This document shows positions 250-5,533 of a stretch of 5,951 nt of DNA, in pieces (position 1 is the first letter of the stretch; each line of letters opens with the position of its first letter). Below the pieces are notes generated by a model, which did no database searches, was not told the DNA's origin, and saw only the letters and a list, made by a program, of their open reading frames with translations. Made by a program: the position numbers and the translations under genes. The stretch spans positions 1 to 5,951 of the forward strand of contig DAHVXO010000079.1 of the NCBI GenBank assembly GCA_027356675.1, in the 5' to 3' direction. The DNA comes from Symbiobacteriaceae bacterium. GTDB lineage: Bacteria > Bacillota_E > Symbiobacteriia > Symbiobacteriales > Symbiobacteriaceae.

Positions 250-272
250 CGTCTCGATTCCCTTCCTAGCAC

Positions 273-324
273 AACACCGAACGCACGATCGCTTTGTCGA
301 AAGCGGCCGTACGTCCGGTGTTTT
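273..324 (+). terminator. Intrinsic terminator after the first gene
   Basis: A long imperfect hairpin has an outer stem AACACCG (273-279) pairing with CGGTGTT (316-322). Mostly paired middle sections follow, then an inner stem CGCTTT/AAAGCG around a GTCG tetraloop (296-299). The descending arm runs directly into TTTT (321-324). It is the only hairpin in the window with a T-run and separates the first gene from cstA. Confidence 0.8.
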
Positions 325-585
325 GCTATGTGACGACCGCGAACCATTATGTTCGGCAGATTAATTATCGGTCATTCGATTTTTATGTCTTTGCAGGAAT
401 TTCCGTAAGCGTGACAAAACTGAGTACATACACTTGTTGGATAGGCTGAATCGGGCGAGTTCGGCGTAACCATAACCAAAAAGGTCGCAATGCTAGCACC
501 CCAGGAGGTGAATTGGGACCACAGGGTTTGGATTGGGGGATTGCCGGTCCTAGCGATTGCAATGCCGAAAGGAGGTTGCGGATTC
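325..585 (+). promoter_or_regulatory. cstA upstream region, probably containing its promoter and 5' leader
   Basis: These 261 bases lie between the terminator and the preferred cstA start. The stretch at about 340-480 is clearly richer in A+T than the genes around it, as expected for a promoter region. I found no convincing paired -35/-10 boxes, so no promoter is placed. A second strong Shine-Dalgarno-like sequence, AGGAGGTGA (503-511), lies 65 bases upstream of the one used for cstA. A short inverted pair (GGGACC near 515-520 with GGTCCT near 546-551) lies between them. The leader could therefore be translated or folded, but this is inference. Confidence 0.4.
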
Positions 586-588
586 GTG
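568..588 (+). promoter_or_regulatory. Ribosome binding site deciding the cstA start
   Basis: AAAGGAGG at 568-575 lies 10 bases before GTG 586. This is a far better initiation signal than the one before ATG 490, and it places the first CstA transmembrane helix at the N-terminus. Confidence 0.75.
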
Positions 589-2355
589 AATTCACCAGCC
601 TTGTTCGTGTTGCTTGCGTTGGTCGCCTATGGGATTGCGTACTTCGGGTATGGCAAGTGGTTTGATCGCACGGTTTGGAAGCCCGAAGCGAAGCGGACGA
701 CTCCGGCGCACATGTACACCGATGGCGTGGAATACTTCCCAGTCACGAAGTACGTCCTCTGGGGATACCAGTTTAAGAGCGTAGCTGCGCTCGGCCCCAT
801 CCTTGGTCCTTTCATCGCCATTAATTACGGCTGGGCCCCGGCGCTCGCGTGGATCATCCTCGGTAACTTCTTCATCGGCTGGCTCCAGGACTATGGCTCC
901 ATCATGTTGTCCATTCGAAATGGCGGACGTTCATTTGGACCGATCACCTATGAGTTCACCGGCAACTCCGGCCGGAACACTCTCCTCGGCTTCATCCTCT
1001 TCTATCTCCTGATTATCTCAGCGACCTTTATCTACTTTATCGCCCTCTTCTGGCACATCTTCCCGGCCACCTTTGCAGCTACCGTGGGAATCATCCTGGT
1101 GGGCGTAGGCGCTGGTCAGTTGCTCTACAAGATGCGGGCGAACGTGGTCACCACCACGCTGTTGTCGATCGCGGCGATTGCACTGGTGATTTGGGCGGCA
1201 GCAGCGATTCCGGCGCTGCAGACCCCCGTGGGTGTCTGGCCGCCCAACCCCGCCAAGAACATCAATGCGGGCGGCATCGCTGGCAACTACTCGATCCTGA
1301 TCTGGAGCCTGGTGGCCTGCGTGGTGCTTTACCTGGCCTCCGTGCTGCCGCTGCCGACCTTCATCCAGCCCATTAACTATGTCTCCTTCTTCCCGGCGTT
1401 CCTGGCGATCATTCTGATTCTCGTAGGTGCGCTGGTCTCCGGGTTCACGGGCATTAAGCTGGAGCAACCAGCCTATATCAGCTTCAATCCGGGCGGAAAC
1501 GCACCGATGTGGCCACTGATGTTTGTCGCCATTGCCTGCGGCTCGATCTCGGGATGGCACTCCCTGGTCTCCAGTTCCAGTACTTCCAAGCAGCTTGACG
1601 TCGAGACCGACGCCCACCCAGTCGGCGCCGGCGCCATGCTCTCGGAGGGTTTGCTGGCCCTCGCGTCTTTGGCCGCGTACATGATCATTCCGAAGGCTCA
1701 GCTAAGCAGCAACATTGGGGGCTGGGTGGCCGGGGCCGTGAAGTTTACCGCTCCGTTCTTGGGTGGCCAGGCCTCTGAAGCCTTCCTCAAATCCTATTTC
1801 GGCGTCGTGCTGATCATTTACGCTCTGACCGTGCAGGCACTAGTGACGCGGTTTTGGCGCCTGGTCTCCACCGAGGTCTTCCAGGGTCCGTTCAGCAATC
1901 TCGGTCAGAAGCATGTCGCGACCGCCGTCGGGTTGCTGATACCGCTACTCTTCACAACCACGGGCTCCTGGAACAACTTGTGGTTGTATTTCGGTGGCGC
2001 TAATCAGCTTCTGGCGGGTCTGGCCTTGATGCTGATCACGATTCACCTGGCTCGCACCAAGGCACCAAGTCTGTACACGTTGGTTCCAGCGACCTTTATG
2101 ATCATCACAACGCTTTCCGCCCTTGCCTGGCAGGTAGTGAGGGTGTACTGGCCGGCCTTCATCAACAAGAAGACACTGGTGCAGTTCCCCTTCAATCAGT
2201 ATCCGGCCTTTGCCCGCACGATGGACGGAGTCTTCGTGGTGATTGGTGTCGCCCTCTTAGTCCTCGGGGCAATGATGGCCTGGCAGACGTACGTGTCGTG
2301 CGCTACCGCAACCAAGACCGGAGCAGCGCCAAAGCTGGCTGCGGGCGACGACTAA
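586..2355 (+). CDS. cstA: CstA-family carbon starvation permease (peptide/pyruvate transporter)
   Basis: This is an integral membrane permease of the CstA family. Characterised members take up peptides or pyruvate and are induced when preferred carbon runs out. The 589-residue product is close to the shorter CstA proteins and shorter than the roughly 700-residue E. coli form. By eye it has about 14-16 hydrophobic segments. Family hallmarks include YFPVTKYVLWGYQFKSVAALGP near residues 45-66 (the CstA 'F.i.GP..GP' region), SGWHSLVSSSSTSKQL near 322-337 followed by ETDA and a GAGAML segment, and LWLYFGGANQLLAGLAL near 466-482. The GTG 586 start is chosen because AAAGGAGG (568-575) sits 10 bases upstream and the protein then begins directly with a hydrophobic helix (NSPALFVLLALVAYG). 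The in-frame ATG 490 would add 32 residues unlike CstA and has only a weak AAGG ribosome site. It appears monocistronic, with a terminator before it and a strong hairpin after it. Confidence 0.93.
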   Translation: MNSPALFVLLALVAYGIAYFGYGKWFDRTVWKPEAKRTTPAHMYTDGVEYFPVTKYVLWGYQFKSVAALGPILGPFIAINYGWAPALAWIILGNFFIGWLQDYGSIMLSIRNGGRSFGPITYEFTGNSGRNTLLGFILFYLLIISATFIYFIALFWHIFPATFAATVGIILVGVGAGQLLYKMRANVVTTTLLSIAAIALVIWAAAAIPALQTPVGVWPPNPAKNINAGGIAGNYSILIWSLVACVVLYLASVLPLPTFIQPINYVSFFPAFLAIILILVGALVSGFTGIKLEQPAYISFNPGGNAPMWPLMFVAIACGSISGWHSLVSSSSTSKQLDVETDAHPVGAGAMLSEGLLALASLAAYMIIPKAQLSSNIGGWVAGAVKFTAPFLGGQASEAFLKSYFGVVLIIYALTVQALVTRFWRLVSTEVFQGPFSNLGQKHVATAVGLLIPLLFTTTGSWNNLWLYFGGANQLLAGLALMLITIHLARTKAPSLYTLVPATFMIITTLSALAWQVVRVYWPAFINKKTLVQFPFNQYPAFARTMDGVFVVIGVALLVLGAMMAWQTYVSCATATKTGAAPKLAAGDD

Positions 2356-2359
2356 GAAC

Positions 2360-2452
2360 GTGGACACGGAGCAGGGACCGACACACTGTCGGTCCCTGCT
2401 ATCCCTACGGTCCACCGAGCGGCACCGGGCAGGAGTCAAGCACCGTGTCCAC
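2360..2452 (+). repeat. Inverted repeat enclosing the post-cstA hairpin (possible branched RNA)
   Basis: GTGGACACGG (2360-2369) is the exact reverse complement of CCGTGTCCAC (2443-2452). The left arm abuts the 14-bp hairpin at 2370-2400, so the two helices could stack. A 42-base segment (2401-2442) is left as a third, weakly structured arm. The closing stem ends 34 bases before the Shine-Dalgarno sequence of the next gene, so the element could belong to the cstA 3' end or to the leader of the downstream operon. Confidence 0.55.
2370..2400 (+). terminator. Perfect 14-bp hairpin after cstA, without a T-run
   Basis: AGCAGGGACCGACA (2370-2383) pairs without mismatch to TGTCGGTCCCTGCT (2387-2400) around a three-base CAC loop, 14 bases after the cstA stop. 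It is very stable but is followed by ATCCCTACGG, not a T-run. It may terminate transcription or protect a 3' end. It is also the inner arm of a larger structure described separately. Confidence 0.6.
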
Positions 2453-2499: not shown

Positions 2500-2781
2500 T
2501 TGAGTGGAAAGAGCGACGAACCCAAGAAGAAGGGCGGGTTCATGGGTGCCGTCAAGGGCGTCTTGTACGGCATGGCCAGCCATGGCAACGTGACGGCGGC
2601 CCTCCGTACTCGGATGCACCTGGAGCACCTGTTCATGTTCATCACCCTTGGCGACATGCTCGGTATTCCTGTCCTGCCGCCATACTACTCCCTGCGCATC
2701 CTGCCCTACGCCGTGCCCAACATCGAGTCCTGGAAGCAGCGTGTCTTCCGGGAACGGGACTTTACGGACGCGATCTACTAG
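2500..2781 (+). CDS. Small protein with one hydrophobic segment, first gene of the ArsA-like operon
   Basis: I do not recognise a family for this 93-residue product. The TTG 2500 start is supported by GGAGGTGA (2486-2493), six bases upstream. The N-terminus is Lys-rich (KSDEPKKKGG, residues 4-13), followed by a Gly- and Ala-containing region up to about residue 35. A hydrophobic stretch (HLFMFITLGDMLGIPVLPPYY, about 43-63) follows, interrupted by Asp52 and by prolines. The tail is charged (ESWKQRVFRERDFTDAIY). This could be a monotopic or single-span membrane protein, or a buried amphipathic helix. It has no cleavable signal peptide. The stop lies 36 bases before the first ATPase gene, so the two are probably cotranscribed. 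Given that context, I infer a client, adaptor or membrane anchor for the ATPase pair. No motif proves this. Confidence 0.8.
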   Translation: MSGKSDEPKKKGGFMGAVKGVLYGMASHGNVTAALRTRMHLEHLFMFITLGDMLGIPVLPPYYSLRILPYAVPNIESWKQRVFRERDFTDAIY

Positions 2782-2802: not shown

Positions 2803-2820
2803 TAGGAGGTCCTCATCATG
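2803..2820 (+). promoter_or_regulatory. Ribosome binding site of the first ATPase gene
   Basis: TAGGAGGT (2803-2810) stands seven bases before ATG 2818, a near-ideal signal that fixes the start. The P-loop then begins at residue 22, as is usual for ArsA/Get3 proteins. Confidence 0.85.
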
Positions 2821-3837
2821 CCAAAGGGACTTGGAGCCTACTTTGAACTGCACCCTGAGGTGGAGATCGTCATCTTCGCCGGCAAGGGTGGACTGGGCAA
2901 AACCACCAGCTCGTCCGGGTTGGCCTACTATATGTCGCAGGTCAAGAAGCGGCGGACCCTGCTCTTCTCCACCGACCCACAGGCCTCGTTGTCCGACATC
3001 TTCGAGCGGAATATCTACGGCCAGGGCGAGGTTGAGCTGTTGCCCAACCTCTTCGTAGTCGAAATCGACGCCGATCGCCGGGTCTCGGAGTACCAGAAGC
3101 AGGTCAAGCAGAAAATCATGGATATGTATGGCCTCGACGCCGTACCCAAGGAGATTGAAGAGTACATCGACTCCACCTCCGCCGAGCCGGCCATGTACGA
3201 GAGCGCCACGTATGACGCCATGGCCGAACTGGTAGCGAAAAAGGAGTACGACCTTTATATCTTTGATATGCCGCCCTTCGGCCACGGCGTCCGGATGGTC
3301 GCCATGGCGGATATCCTCTCGAAATGGGTGGAGAAGATCACCGACGCCCGCTCGAAGGTGGCGGAGTACGATGCGGTGGCCGCGACCCTCAAGGGGGAGA
3401 AGGGCCACGAAGACATGGTCATGATGGAGCTGCTCGACATCCGCAACAAGATCAAGGCGTTTACGGACCTGATCACCGCCCGCAAACGCACATCCTTCTT
3501 CATGGTCCTCATCCCCGAGAAGATGGCGATTCTCGACACCGACCGGGCGCTGCAGATGTTCGCCAACCTGGGCATCGATCTCTCCGGCCTCGTGCTCAAC
3601 CAGGTCTACCCGGCAGAACTCCTGACCAAGGAGGGTACCTCCGAGTACCTGCACAACCGGGTCACCATGCAGCAGGAGCATATGAAGACGATTGGCGACA
3701 AGTTCGGCGACAAGGTCAAGGGCATCGTGCCCATGTTCACTCGAGAGCCCAAGGGCTTCGAGATGATCAAGGTCGCCTCCGAGGCGCTGGTTGACTGCAA
3801 GGTCGATCTGCCGTCCACCAAGGGAGGTGTCCTCTAA
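2818..3837 (+). CDS. ArsA/Get3-family ATPase, catalytically complete paralogue
   Basis: This is a soluble P-loop ATPase of the ArsA/Get3 branch of the SIMIBI class, 339 residues and single-domain (classical ArsA is a two-domain fusion of about 580). The deviant Walker A is GKGGLGKTT (22-30), with Lys23 as the residue that reaches across the dimer interface in this family and Lys28 in the P-loop proper. Switch I is STDPQASLSD (51-60), keeping the catalytic Asp53 but with QA in place of the usual AH. Switch II is DMPPFGHG (150-157), keeping Asp150, Gly155 and His156 of the DTAPTGH pattern. Asn261-Gln262 (LVLNQV) match the adenine-contacting NQ of Get3-type proteins. The middle region (about 160-235) is helical and charged, where Get3 carries its client-binding subdomain. 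The only cysteine is near the C-terminus, so there is neither an As(III) triad nor a CxxC zinc site. It overlaps the next ATPase gene by one base, implying translational coupling and equal dosage. Confidence 0.93.
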   Translation: MPKGLGAYFELHPEVEIVIFAGKGGLGKTTSSSGLAYYMSQVKKRRTLLFSTDPQASLSDIFERNIYGQGEVELLPNLFVVEIDADRRVSEYQKQVKQKIMDMYGLDAVPKEIEEYIDSTSAEPAMYESATYDAMAELVAKKEYDLYIFDMPPFGHGVRMVAMADILSKWVEKITDARSKVAEYDAVAATLKGEKGHEDMVMMELLDIRNKIKAFTDLITARKRTSFFMVLIPEKMAILDTDRALQMFANLGIDLSGLVLNQVYPAELLTKEGTSEYLHNRVTMQQEHMKTIGDKFGDKVKGIVPMFTREPKGFEMIKVASEALVDCKVDLPSTKGGVL

Positions 3838-3839
3838 TG
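3822..3839 (+). promoter_or_regulatory. Coupled stop/start (TAATG) with internal ribosome binding site
   Basis: The stop TAA (3835-3837) shares its last A with ATG 3837 of the next gene. GGGAGGTG (3822-3829), inside the end of the first gene, is spaced seven bases before that ATG. This arrangement favours stoichiometric synthesis of the two ATPases. Confidence 0.85.
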
Positions 3840-4862
3840 GCTGAAACCCTGCAGCAGTTCCTGGACGCTAAACCGAACCTGCGCTTCGTCTTCACCGGCG
3901 GCAAGGGCGGGGTGGGCAAGACCATCTCTGCAGCGGTGTTGGGCCTCCGGTTCGCCCAGGAAGGCAAGAAAACGCTGGTCGCATCGCTCAACCCAGTACA
4001 TTCCCTGACATCGGTCTTCGACCAGAACCTCTCGGGCGGCAAATTCGTCCCCGTGGAAGGGGTGCCCAACCTCTTCGCCGTCGAAGTGGACGCCTCCGAC
4101 GTGGTTGCCCGTTACCGCGACAACATCGGCGTGCGCGTCAAGGAGTTCCTGAAGTACGCCGACATTCCCGTCGATTCAAAGCCCTTCGTCGATATCGCCG
4201 TCACCAATCCCGCCTTTGAGGAATCGGCCATGTTCGACAAGATGATCGACATCATGCTGAATGAAGGGAAGGATTTCGACCGGATTATCTTCGACACGGC
4301 GGCCGTGGCCAACGCCATCCGGCTCATTGGCCTGTCGAAGATCTATGGCCTTTGGTTGGGCCGCATGATCGACAGCCGCAAGGAGGCCCTCTCCCTGCGA
4401 GTCCAGCTCTCCTTTCGCAAGGAGAAGGTGGAGGCCGAGGTCAAGAAGGACCCGATGCTGGGCGACCTCATCGACATGAACGACCGCTTCAATCGGGTCA
4501 AGCACCTGCTGGTGGACCCGGAGATCACGGCCTTCTTCTTCGTGACCCTGCCGCTGACGCTGCCAATTTCGGTGGTGACCCGTTTTATCCAGCAGGTCAA
4601 GGCCTACGACATTCCCGTGGGTGGCGTGCTGGTCAACTCCTGCATCCGCACAGCGGAGGCCGAAAAGGCGCGCGGCGACGAGTATCTGCAGAACAAGTTC
4701 AAAGAGCAGCTGACATACATGAAGACCATCGCAGATACCCTGGGCGGTCTGGTCCGGTCGTACGTGCCGCTCTATAACGATGAGGTGCATGGACTCAATG
4801 CCCTTCGGCAGGTGGCGACGGATATGTTCGCCCCTGCGGACCCGACGCAGTACACCGCCTGA
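3837..4862 (+). CDS. ArsA/Get3-family paralogue with degenerate switch regions (probable non-hydrolysing partner)
   Basis: This 341-residue single-domain protein is paralogous to the preceding gene. Their C-terminal parts align directly (MKTI.D..G..V...VP near the end of both). The Walker A is intact: GGKGGVGKTI (21-30), with Lys23, Lys28 and Thr29. Switch I reads SLNPVHSL (50-57), so the catalytic Asp of the DPxHS motif is Asn52 (codon AAC at 3990-3992). Switch II reads DTAAVANA (153-160): Asp153-Thr-Ala are kept, but Pro, Thr, Gly and His of DTAPTGH are replaced. The adenine-contact pair NQ is Asn267-Ser268. In yeast Get3 the equivalent Asp-to-Asn change (D57N) is the standard hydrolysis-deficient mutant, so I infer that this subunit binds nucleotide but hydrolyses it poorly. 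The single Cys269 gives no metal site. Helical residues of about 170-235 would be the client-side subdomain. It is probably the obligate partner of the first ATPase. Confidence 0.92.
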   Translation: MAETLQQFLDAKPNLRFVFTGGKGGVGKTISAAVLGLRFAQEGKKTLVASLNPVHSLTSVFDQNLSGGKFVPVEGVPNLFAVEVDASDVVARYRDNIGVRVKEFLKYADIPVDSKPFVDIAVTNPAFEESAMFDKMIDIMLNEGKDFDRIIFDTAAVANAIRLIGLSKIYGLWLGRMIDSRKEALSLRVQLSFRKEKVEAEVKKDPMLGDLIDMNDRFNRVKHLLVDPEITAFFFVTLPLTLPISVVTRFIQQVKAYDIPVGGVLVNSCIRTAEAEKARGDEYLQNKFKEQLTYMKTIADTLGGLVRSYVPLYNDEVHGLNALRQVATDMFAPADPTQYTA

Positions 4863-4863
4863 G

Positions 4864-4896
4864 GGGGTTCGACTATCCGAGACCAGTCGAAGCCCC
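4864..4896 (+). terminator. Hairpin after the ATPase pair, without a T-run
   Basis: GGGGTTCGACT (4864-4874) pairs with AGTCGAA (4885-4891) and, after a one-base bulge at 4892, with CCCC (4893-4896). This makes an 11-bp stem beginning one base after the ATPase stop codon. TGCTGACG follows instead of Ts, so it may be a Rho-assisted terminator, an mRNA-stabilising 3' structure, or a partial block before the next gene. Confidence 0.5.
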
Positions 4897-4907
4897 TGCT
4901 GACGAAA

Positions 4908-4967: not shown

Positions 4968-5498
4968 TTGCGAGAACAGTTGCTGGCTGCCAACAACCTG
5001 CTGATCGGGACGACGAACATCCTGCTGGTCGGCGTGCCGGATACCTGGCGGGTCGCCAGGGGGCATTCCGGACCCGAAGTCGAGCGGTGGAGCGAGTACC
5101 GGACCCGGCGTTGGATGACTTTGGGTCAGGGTCCGTACCGGTTGGTGGATCCCCATCCCGAACAGCCGGCGTTGGTGCGGGCCGAGGTGGAACTCTTCAT
5201 CACGGCGCGGCCAGGAGAGGATGCCACTGTCGCAAAGCACCGCCTGACCACCACCGGCGAGAGCGGCGTCATGGACCTGGCCGGCCATGAGGCGCACTAC
5301 ACCTACGGCACGGTCAAACGGGGATTTCTGCGCAGCAGCGAGGTGCCGGCGCTGCACCTGGCATGGACTTGCGCCGAGACTTCCCGGCACCTGACGGTAG
5401 AGTACAGCGCTTCCTTCCAGAACGGGAACGTCATGGCGACGACCGACGACCTGTCCCAATTGCTCCAGGCCCTGACCCAGGCGATCCGGTGCCACTGA
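4968..5498 (+). CDS. Unrecognised 176-aa protein downstream of the ATPase pair
   Basis: The TTG 4968 start is supported by AAGGAGG (4951-4957), ten bases upstream. The 176-residue product matches no family I know. It has no signal peptide, though residues 11-23 (LLIGTTNILLVGV) are moderately hydrophobic. After that it alternates short polar and hydrophobic stretches, suggesting a beta-rich globular fold. Visible motifs are GHEAHYTYGTVKRG (106-119) and LHLAWTCAETSRHLTVEY (about 129-146). These carry one mid-protein cysteine (Cys135) next to a Trp and Thr-Arg pattern, with a second Cys two residues before the end. The spacer from the ATPase operon is 105 bases with two hairpins, so cotranscription is possible but not assured. 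Codon use matches its neighbours. A role with the ATPases is inference from position only. Confidence 0.8.
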   Translation: MREQLLAANNLLIGTTNILLVGVPDTWRVARGHSGPEVERWSEYRTRRWMTLGQGPYRLVDPHPEQPALVRAEVELFITARPGEDATVAKHRLTTTGESGVMDLAGHEAHYTYGTVKRGFLRSSEVPALHLAWTCAETSRHLTVEYSASFQNGNVMATTDDLSQLLQALTQAIRCH

Positions 5499-5506
5499 AC
5501 GACGTT

Positions 5507-5533
5507 CAGCCCTCCTGTTACCCAGGAGGGCTG
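5507..5533 (+). terminator. Perfect 11-bp hairpin after the 176-aa gene
   Basis: CAGCCCTCCTG (5507-5517) pairs exactly with CAGGAGGGCTG (5523-5533) around TTACC, starting nine bases after the stop codon. No T-run follows on either strand. Its position between convergent genes suggests a terminator or a 3' end block for the plus-strand unit. Confidence 0.6.

What the first reader, a model, noticed from the sequence alone, without database searches (positions are those of the whole stretch)
2818..4862. Tandem, translationally coupled ArsA/Get3 paralogues that look like an asymmetric heterodimer
Two single-domain paralogues overlap by one base, so they are made in equal amounts. One has complete switch motifs and the other has degenerate ones, while both keep the P-loop and the interface lysine (Lys23 in each). 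ArsA/Get3 proteins work as dimers or pseudodimers with nucleotide at the interface. The simplest reading is one hydrolysing and one non-hydrolysing subunit. Paired ArsA-like proteins are known in mycobacteria (Rv3679/Rv3680), but the small hydrophobic protein and the 176-aa protein beside this pair make the local system distinctive. Arsenite extrusion is unlikely because the cysteine sites and other ars genes are absent from view.
Basis: partly seen in the sequence, partly recalled or inferred. Interest (0 to 1): 0.72.

Follow-up and report, generated by a model that had tools for sequence, protein, structure and literature searches.

The report
Lopsided ATPase pair beside CstA transporter
Two neighbouring genes encode a matched pair of ATP-using proteins, one with an intact catalytic centre and one carrying the change that blocks ATP splitting in a well-studied relative; the pair sits beside a nutrient transporter, and the same arrangement recurs in distant bacteria and archaea.

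Summary
ArsA1 (2818-3837) and ArsA2 (3837-4862) overlap by one base, are 27% identical, and both keep the P-loop and Lys23. The asymmetry is a fixed family trait. At the catalytic switch-I Asp (Asp57 of yeast Get3), ArsA1 has Asp in 89 of 89 sequences and ArsA2 has Asn in 98 of 98. ArsA2 also loses the switch-II Gly-His. D57N traps yeast Get3 with ATP (PMC12506534, passages). In an 84-row tree each paralogue is one clade and the two are sisters. Their trees mirror each other (r = 0.958). In sampled genomes ArsA2 lacked ArsA1 only at contig ends.

The 93-aa protein is CstX-like. CstA-CstX-ArsA linkage was published in 2010 (PMC2963123), with adjacent ArsA pairs in two organisms; that paper suggests homodimers and never uses "heterodimer". 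New here: the fixed Asp/Asn asymmetry, the pair's spread, two CstX paralogues in most paired loci, and a fifth protein with invariant His/Cys. Most likely an asymmetric heterodimeric ATPase acting on CstA through CstX. The dimer is not shown: my fused model recovered no interface.

The parts
490..2355 (+). CstA-family transporter (621 aa)
   Evidence: PF02554 331.9 bits, cut-off 27; found in 21 of 21 relatives with at least 4.5 kb held on both sides of ArsA2
2370..2400 (.). perfect 14-nt inverted repeat just after the CstA stop codon; role unknown
   Evidence: not among the terminator-like sites
2500..2781 (+). CstX-like small protein S1 (93 aa, TTG start)
   Evidence: weak NF041419 'cory-CC-star' match, 32.5 bits against cut-off 80; S1 present in 54 of 54 relatives with at least 1.6 kb upstream of ArsA2; no C-terminal CC
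2818..3837 (+). ArsA1: ArsA/Get3-type ATPase with the catalytic Asp
   Evidence: PF02374 and TIGR00345 above cut-off
2878..2907 (+). ArsA1 P-loop AGKGGLGKTT (residues 21-30, Lys23)
2968..2997 (+). ArsA1 switch I STDPQASLSD; Asp53 at 2974-2976
   Evidence: Asp in 89 of 89
3265..3294 (+). ArsA1 switch II DMPPFGHGVR; Gly155-His156 kept
   Evidence: Gly-His in 89 of 89
3837..4862 (+). ArsA2: paralogue with degenerate catalytic motifs
   Evidence: PF02374 and TIGR00345 above cut-off
3894..3923 (+). ArsA2 P-loop TGGKGGVGKT (residues 20-29, Lys23)
3984..4013 (+). ArsA2 switch I SLNPVHSLTS; Asn52 at 3990-3992 replaces the catalytic Asp
   Evidence: Asn in 98 of 98
4293..4322 (+). ArsA2 switch II DTAAVANAIR; Gly-His replaced by Ala158-Asn159
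   Evidence: Ala in 98 of 98, Asn in 97 of 98
4968..5498 (+). 176-aa cassette protein, predicted PsbP/Mog1-like fold, invariant His107, Cys135, Arg140, Cys175-His176
   Evidence: 25-row alignment; pLDDT 87.6; fold matches; matched in 14 of 21 well-flanked relatives at 25 bits or more, and in three more of the 21 (L011, L018, L023) at E below 1e-3

Best explanation
ArsA1 and ArsA2 form an obligate heterodimer of the ArsA/Get3 ATPase family. ArsA1 hydrolyses ATP, with its own Asp53 and the Lys23 that ArsA2 supplies across the interface. ArsA2 binds ATP but cannot hydrolyse it, being naturally Asn52, so it is a structural or regulatory half of the nucleotide clamp. The clamp acts at the membrane on the CstA transporter through the CstX-like small protein(s), making CstA activity ATP-dependent or ATP-gated. 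Shown by comparison: motifs, their fixation, gene linkage, single origin of the pair. Inferred: heterodimer, one-sided hydrolysis, contact with CstX and CstA, direction of coupling, substrate (pyruvate or peptides, by analogy with E. coli CstA).
For: Asp in 89 of 89 ArsA1; Asn in 98 of 98 ArsA2; switch-II Gly-His in 89 of 89 ArsA1; in ArsA2 the Gly is Ala in 98 of 98 and the His is Asn in 97 of 98; Lys23 and Lys28 kept in all. Thirteen aligned positions are at least 95% fixed but different in the two paralogues; six lie in the P-loop, switch I and switch II, and a seventh two residues after the P-loop. In yeast Get3, D57 is essential for hydrolysis and D57N gives an ATP-bound closed dimer (PMC12506534, passages). 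ArsA1 and ArsA2 are each one clade (100/100) and sisters (99/96). Mirror-tree r = 0.958 over 27 pairs, best of 2000 permutations 0.43; mean distances 1.57 and 1.53, so ArsA2 is not decaying. ArsA1 adjacent in 60 of 60 loci with at least 250 nt upstream and in 62 of 64 sampled genomes, the other two at contig ends. In 7 of 10 genomes the pair are the only full-length ArsA_ATPase matches. CstA in 21 of 21 well-flanked loci, S1 in 54 of 54. Published coevolution of ArsA, CstA and CstX (PMC2963123).
Against: The fused ArsA1-ArsA2 model was weak (pLDDT 72.9, pTM 0.47) and does not superpose on two-domain ArsA (rmsd 20.7-23.6 A, TM 0.29-0.44): no positive structural support. In E. coli, CstA with YbdD is described as a pyruvate import system and the passages read name no ATPase partner (PMC5847655), so a CstA may not need ATP. 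In two genomes CstA lies far from the pair (G347, G363). The sequences are related, so counts are not independent. Four of 33 well-flanked paired loci show only one CstX (two of the four, L052 and L233, are the same locus).
Confidence: 0.6

Rival explanations
1. The pair is an asymmetric heterodimer, but a chaperone or assembly factor: it shields and delivers the CstX-like proteins (or CstA) to the membrane, as Get3 does for tail-anchored proteins, instead of energising or gating transport.
For: Archaeal Get3-type proteins are the closest solved relatives of ArsA1 by sequence (3zq6, 3ug6) and second and third for ArsA2, after an algal ArsA1 (5zme). CstX-like proteins carry a conserved, moderately hydrophobic stretch. 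E. coli CstA is described with YbdD and no ATPase in the passages read (PMC5847655).
Against: The CxxC motif, present in 24 of 32 other ArsA/Get3-like rows, is found in 1 of 89 ArsA1 and 0 of 98 ArsA2. The hydrophobic stretch is borderline and not at the extreme C-terminus.
Confidence: 0.25
2. Each ATPase works as its own homodimer; the genes are merely co-expressed paralogues with different jobs.
For: Castillo & Saier suggest homodimers for the single-domain CstA-linked ArsA proteins (PMC2963123). Single-gene CstX-linked ArsA proteins with canonical motifs exist (7 loci).
Against: An ArsA2 homodimer would have two predicted dead sites in every member (98 of 98). Neither gene was found alone away from contig ends. 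Mirror trees r = 0.958.
Confidence: 0.12
3. An arsenite or other anion efflux ATPase.
For: Names only: many relatives are called 'arsenite-transporting ATPase' by a source.
Against: Single-domain; no cysteine among the invariant columns; NCBIfam arsenical-pump models far below cut-off; no ars gene recognised among the 7 ORFs scanned; CstA linkage instead. [quoted passage not shown]
Confidence: 0.03

Closest known systems
CstA-linked ArsA homologues, clusters 14-18, above all cluster 15 (Symbiobacterium and Pyrobaculum pairs) of Castillo & Saier 2010 (PMC2963123)
   Same: single-domain ArsA beside CstA and a ~90-aa CstX; adjacent ArsA pairs 25-31% identical in two organisms; ArsA proposed to energise CstA; Asn noted as the only substitute for the Asp of an SXD motif
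   Different: the paper suggests homodimers and does not use the word heterodimer; the division of Asp and Asn between the two subfamilies, the wide spread of the pair and the 176-aa protein are not described in the parts I read
Get3/TRC40 (yeast, archaeal)
   Same: family, P-loop Lys, switch motifs; the D57N mutant matches the ArsA2 state
   Different: homodimer with two like sites; many members have CxxC; handles tail-anchored proteins
E. coli ArsA
   Same: two unequal ATPase halves acting with a membrane carrier (ArsB)
   Different: one fused chain, arsenite-binding cysteines, ars operon
Mycobacterial Rv3679/Rv3680 (BagA/BagB; PDB 6bs3)
   Same: two ArsA-like proteins of one operon (PMC10597346, passages), both present in one solved entry
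   Different: very distant (E 2e-4 to 3e-5); NCBIfam BagA/BagB models 30-44 bits against cut-offs 400 and 521; CstA linkage not examined here
E. coli CstA-YbdD pyruvate importer (PMC5847655, passages)
   Same: CstA plus a small accessory protein
   Different: no ATPase named in the passages read; S1 has no Pfam match to link it to YbdD (that YbdD has a Pfam family of its own is recalled)
Heterodimeric ABC exporters with one degenerate site (recalled analogy)
   Same: one hydrolysing and one binding-only nucleotide site
   Different: unrelated ATPase family; analogy only

Membership tests
ArsA/Get3/TRC40 family (PF02374, TIGR00345) | curated score cut-offs | tested here: met
   PF02374 217 and 181 bits against 24.3; TIGR00345 210 and 192 against 135
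CstA-linked ArsA group (Castillo & Saier cluster 15) | adjacent single-domain pair, 25-31% identical, with CstA and CstX | tested here: met
   27% identity; CstA and CstX-like genes upstream; same order in L001, titled Symbiobacterium thermophilum. Their own sequences were not compared
Arsenical pump ATPase ArsA | two fused domains and NCBIfam equivalog cut-off | tested here: not met
   single domains; TIGR04291 91 and 98 bits against 650
Arsenical pump ATPase ArsA | conserved arsenite-binding cysteines | tested here: not met
   no Cys among invariant columns of either 19-row alignment
Get3 tail-anchored protein targeting factor | CxxC motif (many members) | tested here: not met
   1 of 89 ArsA1, 0 of 98 ArsA2, against 24 of 32 other ArsA/Get3-like rows
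Get3 tail-anchored protein targeting factor | binding of tail-anchored substrates | not testable with these tools
   needs biochemistry
BagA/BagB | NCBIfam equivalog cut-offs | tested here: not met
   29.7-43.5 bits against 400 and 521
cory-CC-star protein NF041419 (for the 93-aa protein) | score cut-off 80 bits | tested here: not met
   32.5 bits; all 14 S1 rows match at E up to 1, but bits were printed for the window's alone
cory-CC-star protein NF041419 (for the 93-aa protein) | C-terminal Cys-Cys (read from the name and from L225, which passes the cut-off) | tested here: not met
   window S1 ends in AIY; 0 of 110 CstX-like proteins in paired loci end in CC, 6 of 7 in single-ArsA loci do
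CstA transporter family | PF02554 cut-off | tested here: met
   331.9 bits against 27
Asymmetric ArsA/Get3 heterodimer | 1:1 complex in solution or a confident interface | tested here: inconclusive
   fused model pTM 0.47, no ArsA-like arrangement
PsbP/Mog1-like fold (176-aa protein) | structural match over most of the domain | tested here: inconclusive

The most novel reading that the evidence does not exclude
A transporter complex built on matched asymmetry: one CstA, a half-dead ArsA heterodimer and two different CstX adaptors, each docking on one ATPase subunit, so that ATP hydrolysis at a single site gives CstA a directional or gated stroke. This would be the ArsA/Get3 counterpart of heterodimeric ABC transporters with one degenerate site, and it would have spread through bacteria and archaea in place of an ancestral symmetric ArsA with one CstX.
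Probability: 0.3. Interest if true: 0.78.

Novelty: new variant of a known kind. Interest (0 to 1): 0.6.

Why it matters
It supplies a natural, conserved 'one live site, one dead site' ArsA/Get3 ATPase. That lets one test whether these clamps need two hydrolysis events per cycle, which fixed homodimers and fused ArsA make hard to ask. It also gives a defined gene set for testing the 2010 proposal that ArsA proteins power CstA, a nutrient importer for which no ATPase partner is named in the E. coli passages read. Many relatives carry the name 'arsenite-transporting ATPase', which is probably wrong.

Tried and rejected
Arsenic role: rejected. BagAB membership: not met; canonical adjacent pairs in L107, L109 and L215 fall in another clade. 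Get3 chains match one half at a time (target-normalised TM up to 0.81) and two-domain ArsA aligns in order along both halves, but the mutual arrangement was not confident and not ArsA-like. Regulatory RNA: no Rfam match at gathering scores. Terminator-like sites 2 against a shuffled mean of 4.5; promoter-like sites 4 against 1.4 (sd 1.1), all on the minus strand, so none explains these genes. Interface coevolution between the two proteins was not attempted: about 90 related pairs are too few.

Rows left out and limits: of 68 loci, L063 (ArsA2 cut by the contig end), L064 (single ArsA) and L065-L068 (partial hits, no cassette gene found) were not counted as ArsA2 loci, leaving 62. The one locus of 62 without ArsA1, L038, has 51 nt upstream. 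The 'single, CstX-linked' group (8 rows) holds one misfiled row, the truncated ArsA2 of L063, its only Asn; without it 7 of 7 have Asp. It was left out of the tree. In one search L030, L038 and L039 were filed as 'single' only because their contigs end inside the pair; true singles are L219-L225. L233 repeats L052, so the two-CstX count is 29 of 33 as run and 29 of 32 distinct. The tree used 84 of 227 sequences, chosen by hand for spread; labels 'pairlike' and 'get3like' were set by locus number and are loose (L069, L070 and L108 are lone genes; L215, labelled get3like, groups with the adjacent pairs). The genome searches used the ArsA2 profile; ArsA1 shows in them as a weaker match, and at most 8 candidates a genome were scored. 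G151 and G145 gave fragments only and were not counted. The 176-aa alignment took 24 relatives found by similarity; L002 was dropped. The output was cut by about a sixth; the motif counts come.

Against the CstX rule: Castillo & Saier report two CstX in Thermococcus kodakarensis, listed in their single-ArsA cluster 14; my seven single-ArsA loci come only from draws around two Bacillota genomes.
Full report
1. What is in the window. On the + strand lie a CstA-family transporter (490-2355; PF02554 331.9 bits), a 93-aa protein S1 (2500-2781), ArsA1 (2818-3837), ArsA2 (3837-4862) and a 176-aa protein (4968-5498). Shine-Dalgarno-like sequences precede S1, ArsA1, ArsA2 and the 176-aa gene. The two ATPases share one base, match ArsA_ATPase strongly and are 27% identical. 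No whole genome is held for the window. Named close relatives include Symbiobacteriaceae, Thermaerobacter and Caldinitratiruptor proteins.

2. The asymmetry is real and fixed. In two 19-row alignments the motifs are invariant. ArsA2 has Asn in 98 of 98, Ala for Gly in 98 of 98 and Asn for His in 97 of 98. Both keep Lys23 and the P-loop Lys28 in all. Of 13 positions at least 95% fixed but different between the two, six lie in the P-loop, switch I and switch II, and a seventh two residues after the P-loop. Asp57 of yeast Get3 is essential for hydrolysis, and D57N gives an ATP-bound closed dimer (PMC12506534, passages only). That ArsA2 Asn52 corresponds to Asp57 rests on the STDP motif of Get3 (recalled) and on the alignment with other ArsA/Get3-like rows (32 of 32 Asp). 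Sequences are related, so these counts are not independent events. The divergent pair of L131 (genome G150, drawn from the phylum of a Crenarchaeota-titled MAG) has Asn but keeps the switch-II His, so Asn is the steadier mark.

3. Origin. In a tree of 84 hand-chosen rows, ArsA1 (28) and ArsA2 (29) are each one clade with 100/100 support and are united at 99/96; seven single ArsA proteins linked to CstX are the next clade (the root is at the midpoint, for drawing). One duplication explains the pair. Patristic distances of 27 pairs correlate at r = 0.958 (best of 2000 permutations 0.43), and the degenerate copy evolves no faster (means 1.53 and 1.57).

4. The pair is obligate and self-contained. 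Of 62 loci with ArsA2, ArsA1 lies directly upstream in 61, and in 60 of 60 with at least 250 nt upstream. In whole-genome searches by phylum with the ArsA2 profile (119, 29, 251, 148, 249 and 145 genomes, the first and fifth draws overlapping), 64 distinct genomes have an ArsA2-type match above 330 bits by my reading of the tables. In 62 an ArsA1-type match is adjacent; the two exceptions (G157, G324) are at contig ends. In 7 of 10 genomes searched with PF02374 the pair are the only full-length matches (the others are G001 with a lone gene, and G006 and G008 with one more each).

5. The setting. CstA lies in 21 of 21 loci with at least 4.5 kb on both sides (50 of all 62, the rest cut short), S1 in 54 of 54 with at least 1.6 kb upstream, a second CstX-like protein S2 in 19 of 21 and the 176-aa protein in 14 of 21, with weaker matches in three more. 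By record titles the cassette occurs in Bacillota/Symbiobacterium, Chloroflexi, Crenarchaeota/Thermoproteota, Bathyarchaeota, Asgard and euryarchaeal (Thermoplasmata) MAGs. In a wider set of well-flanked paired loci, 29 of 33 (29 of 32 distinct) hold two or more CstX-like genes, and 0 of 110 CstX-like proteins in paired loci end in Cys-Cys. The seven single-ArsA loci show one CstX each, ending in Cys-Cys in 6 of 7. The rule is tentative: Castillo & Saier report two CstX in Thermococcus kodakarensis, which they list in a single-ArsA cluster. In two genomes drawn with the Chloroflexi MAG G008, CstA is not next to the pair (G347, G363), but 18 of 18 genomes searched have a CstA match.

6. What is known. 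Castillo & Saier 2010 (PMC2963123; abstract, sections 3.2 and 3.12 and found passages read) proposed that ArsA homologues energise CstA through CstX, noted adjacent ArsA pairs in Symbiobacterium and Pyrobaculum, noted Asn as the only substitute for Asp in an SXD motif of single-domain proteins, and suggested homodimers; the word heterodimer does not occur in its main text. Searches for work combining CstA/CstX with ArsA listed that paper and, by title, no other relevant one; a search for degenerate ArsA/Get3 heterodimers listed none. The library holds open-licence papers only. BagA/BagB papers were seen as listings and passages.

7. Mechanism. By analogy with Get3 D57N, ArsA2 should bind ATP without splitting it, and Lys23 of ArsA2 should still complete the ArsA1 site (the cross-interface role of this Lys is recalled). 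Hydrolysis would then occur at one site per dimer. The gene company points to CstA as the target and CstX as the link. Whether the ATPase powers, gates or assembles CstA is open: E. coli CstA with YbdD imports pyruvate, and the passages read name no ATPase partner (PMC5847655), which argues that ATP is not intrinsic to CstA transport.

8. What failed. A fused read-through of ArsA1 and ArsA2 of L004 with 7 other rows gave pLDDT 72.9 and pTM 0.47. Get3 chains match one half at a time (target-normalised TM up to 0.81), but the whole superposes badly on two-domain ArsA (rmsd 20.7-23.6 A). The linker was short and the alignment shallow, so this neither supports nor refutes the heterodimer.

10. Verdict. 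It is a new variant of the known CstA-linked ArsA group: an obligate, ancient pair with one intact and one catalytically degenerate subunit.

Noticed in passing
window 4968-5498: A 176-aa cassette protein without a known family: predicted PsbP/Mog1-like fold, invariant His, Cys, Arg and a C-terminal Cys-His, suggesting a metal or redox site.
   Followed up: partly
L219-L225 against paired loci L001-L062 and L226-L234: Single-ArsA loci show one CstX-like protein, ending in Cys-Cys in 6 of 7; paired-ArsA loci mostly carry two, and 0 of 110 end in Cys-Cys.
   Followed up: partly
window 2370-2400, 4862-4897, 5507-5533: Strong inverted repeats directly after the CstA, ArsA2 and 176-aa genes, not among the terminator-like sites.
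   Followed up: no
window 267-328: A 29-nt, 83% complementary inverted repeat in the gap upstream of cstA; no Rfam match.
   Followed up: no
L107, L109, L215: Adjacent pairs of canonical ArsA-like genes in other genomes of the Bacillota draws, in a separate clade; the L110 frame of about 610 aa also falls there.
   Followed up: no
L064 and L222 (same genome, G001): A single ArsA and a CstX-like gene with no CstA found in the 21 kb held; CstA matches lie on other contigs of that genome.
   Followed up: partly
P0006, P0139 and P0249: Close relatives of ArsA2 (86%), ArsA1 (83%) and the 176-aa protein (49%) are labelled 'MAG ... Mycobacterium leprae'; given the Symbiobacteriaceae neighbours this label is probably a misnamed MAG.
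   Followed up: no
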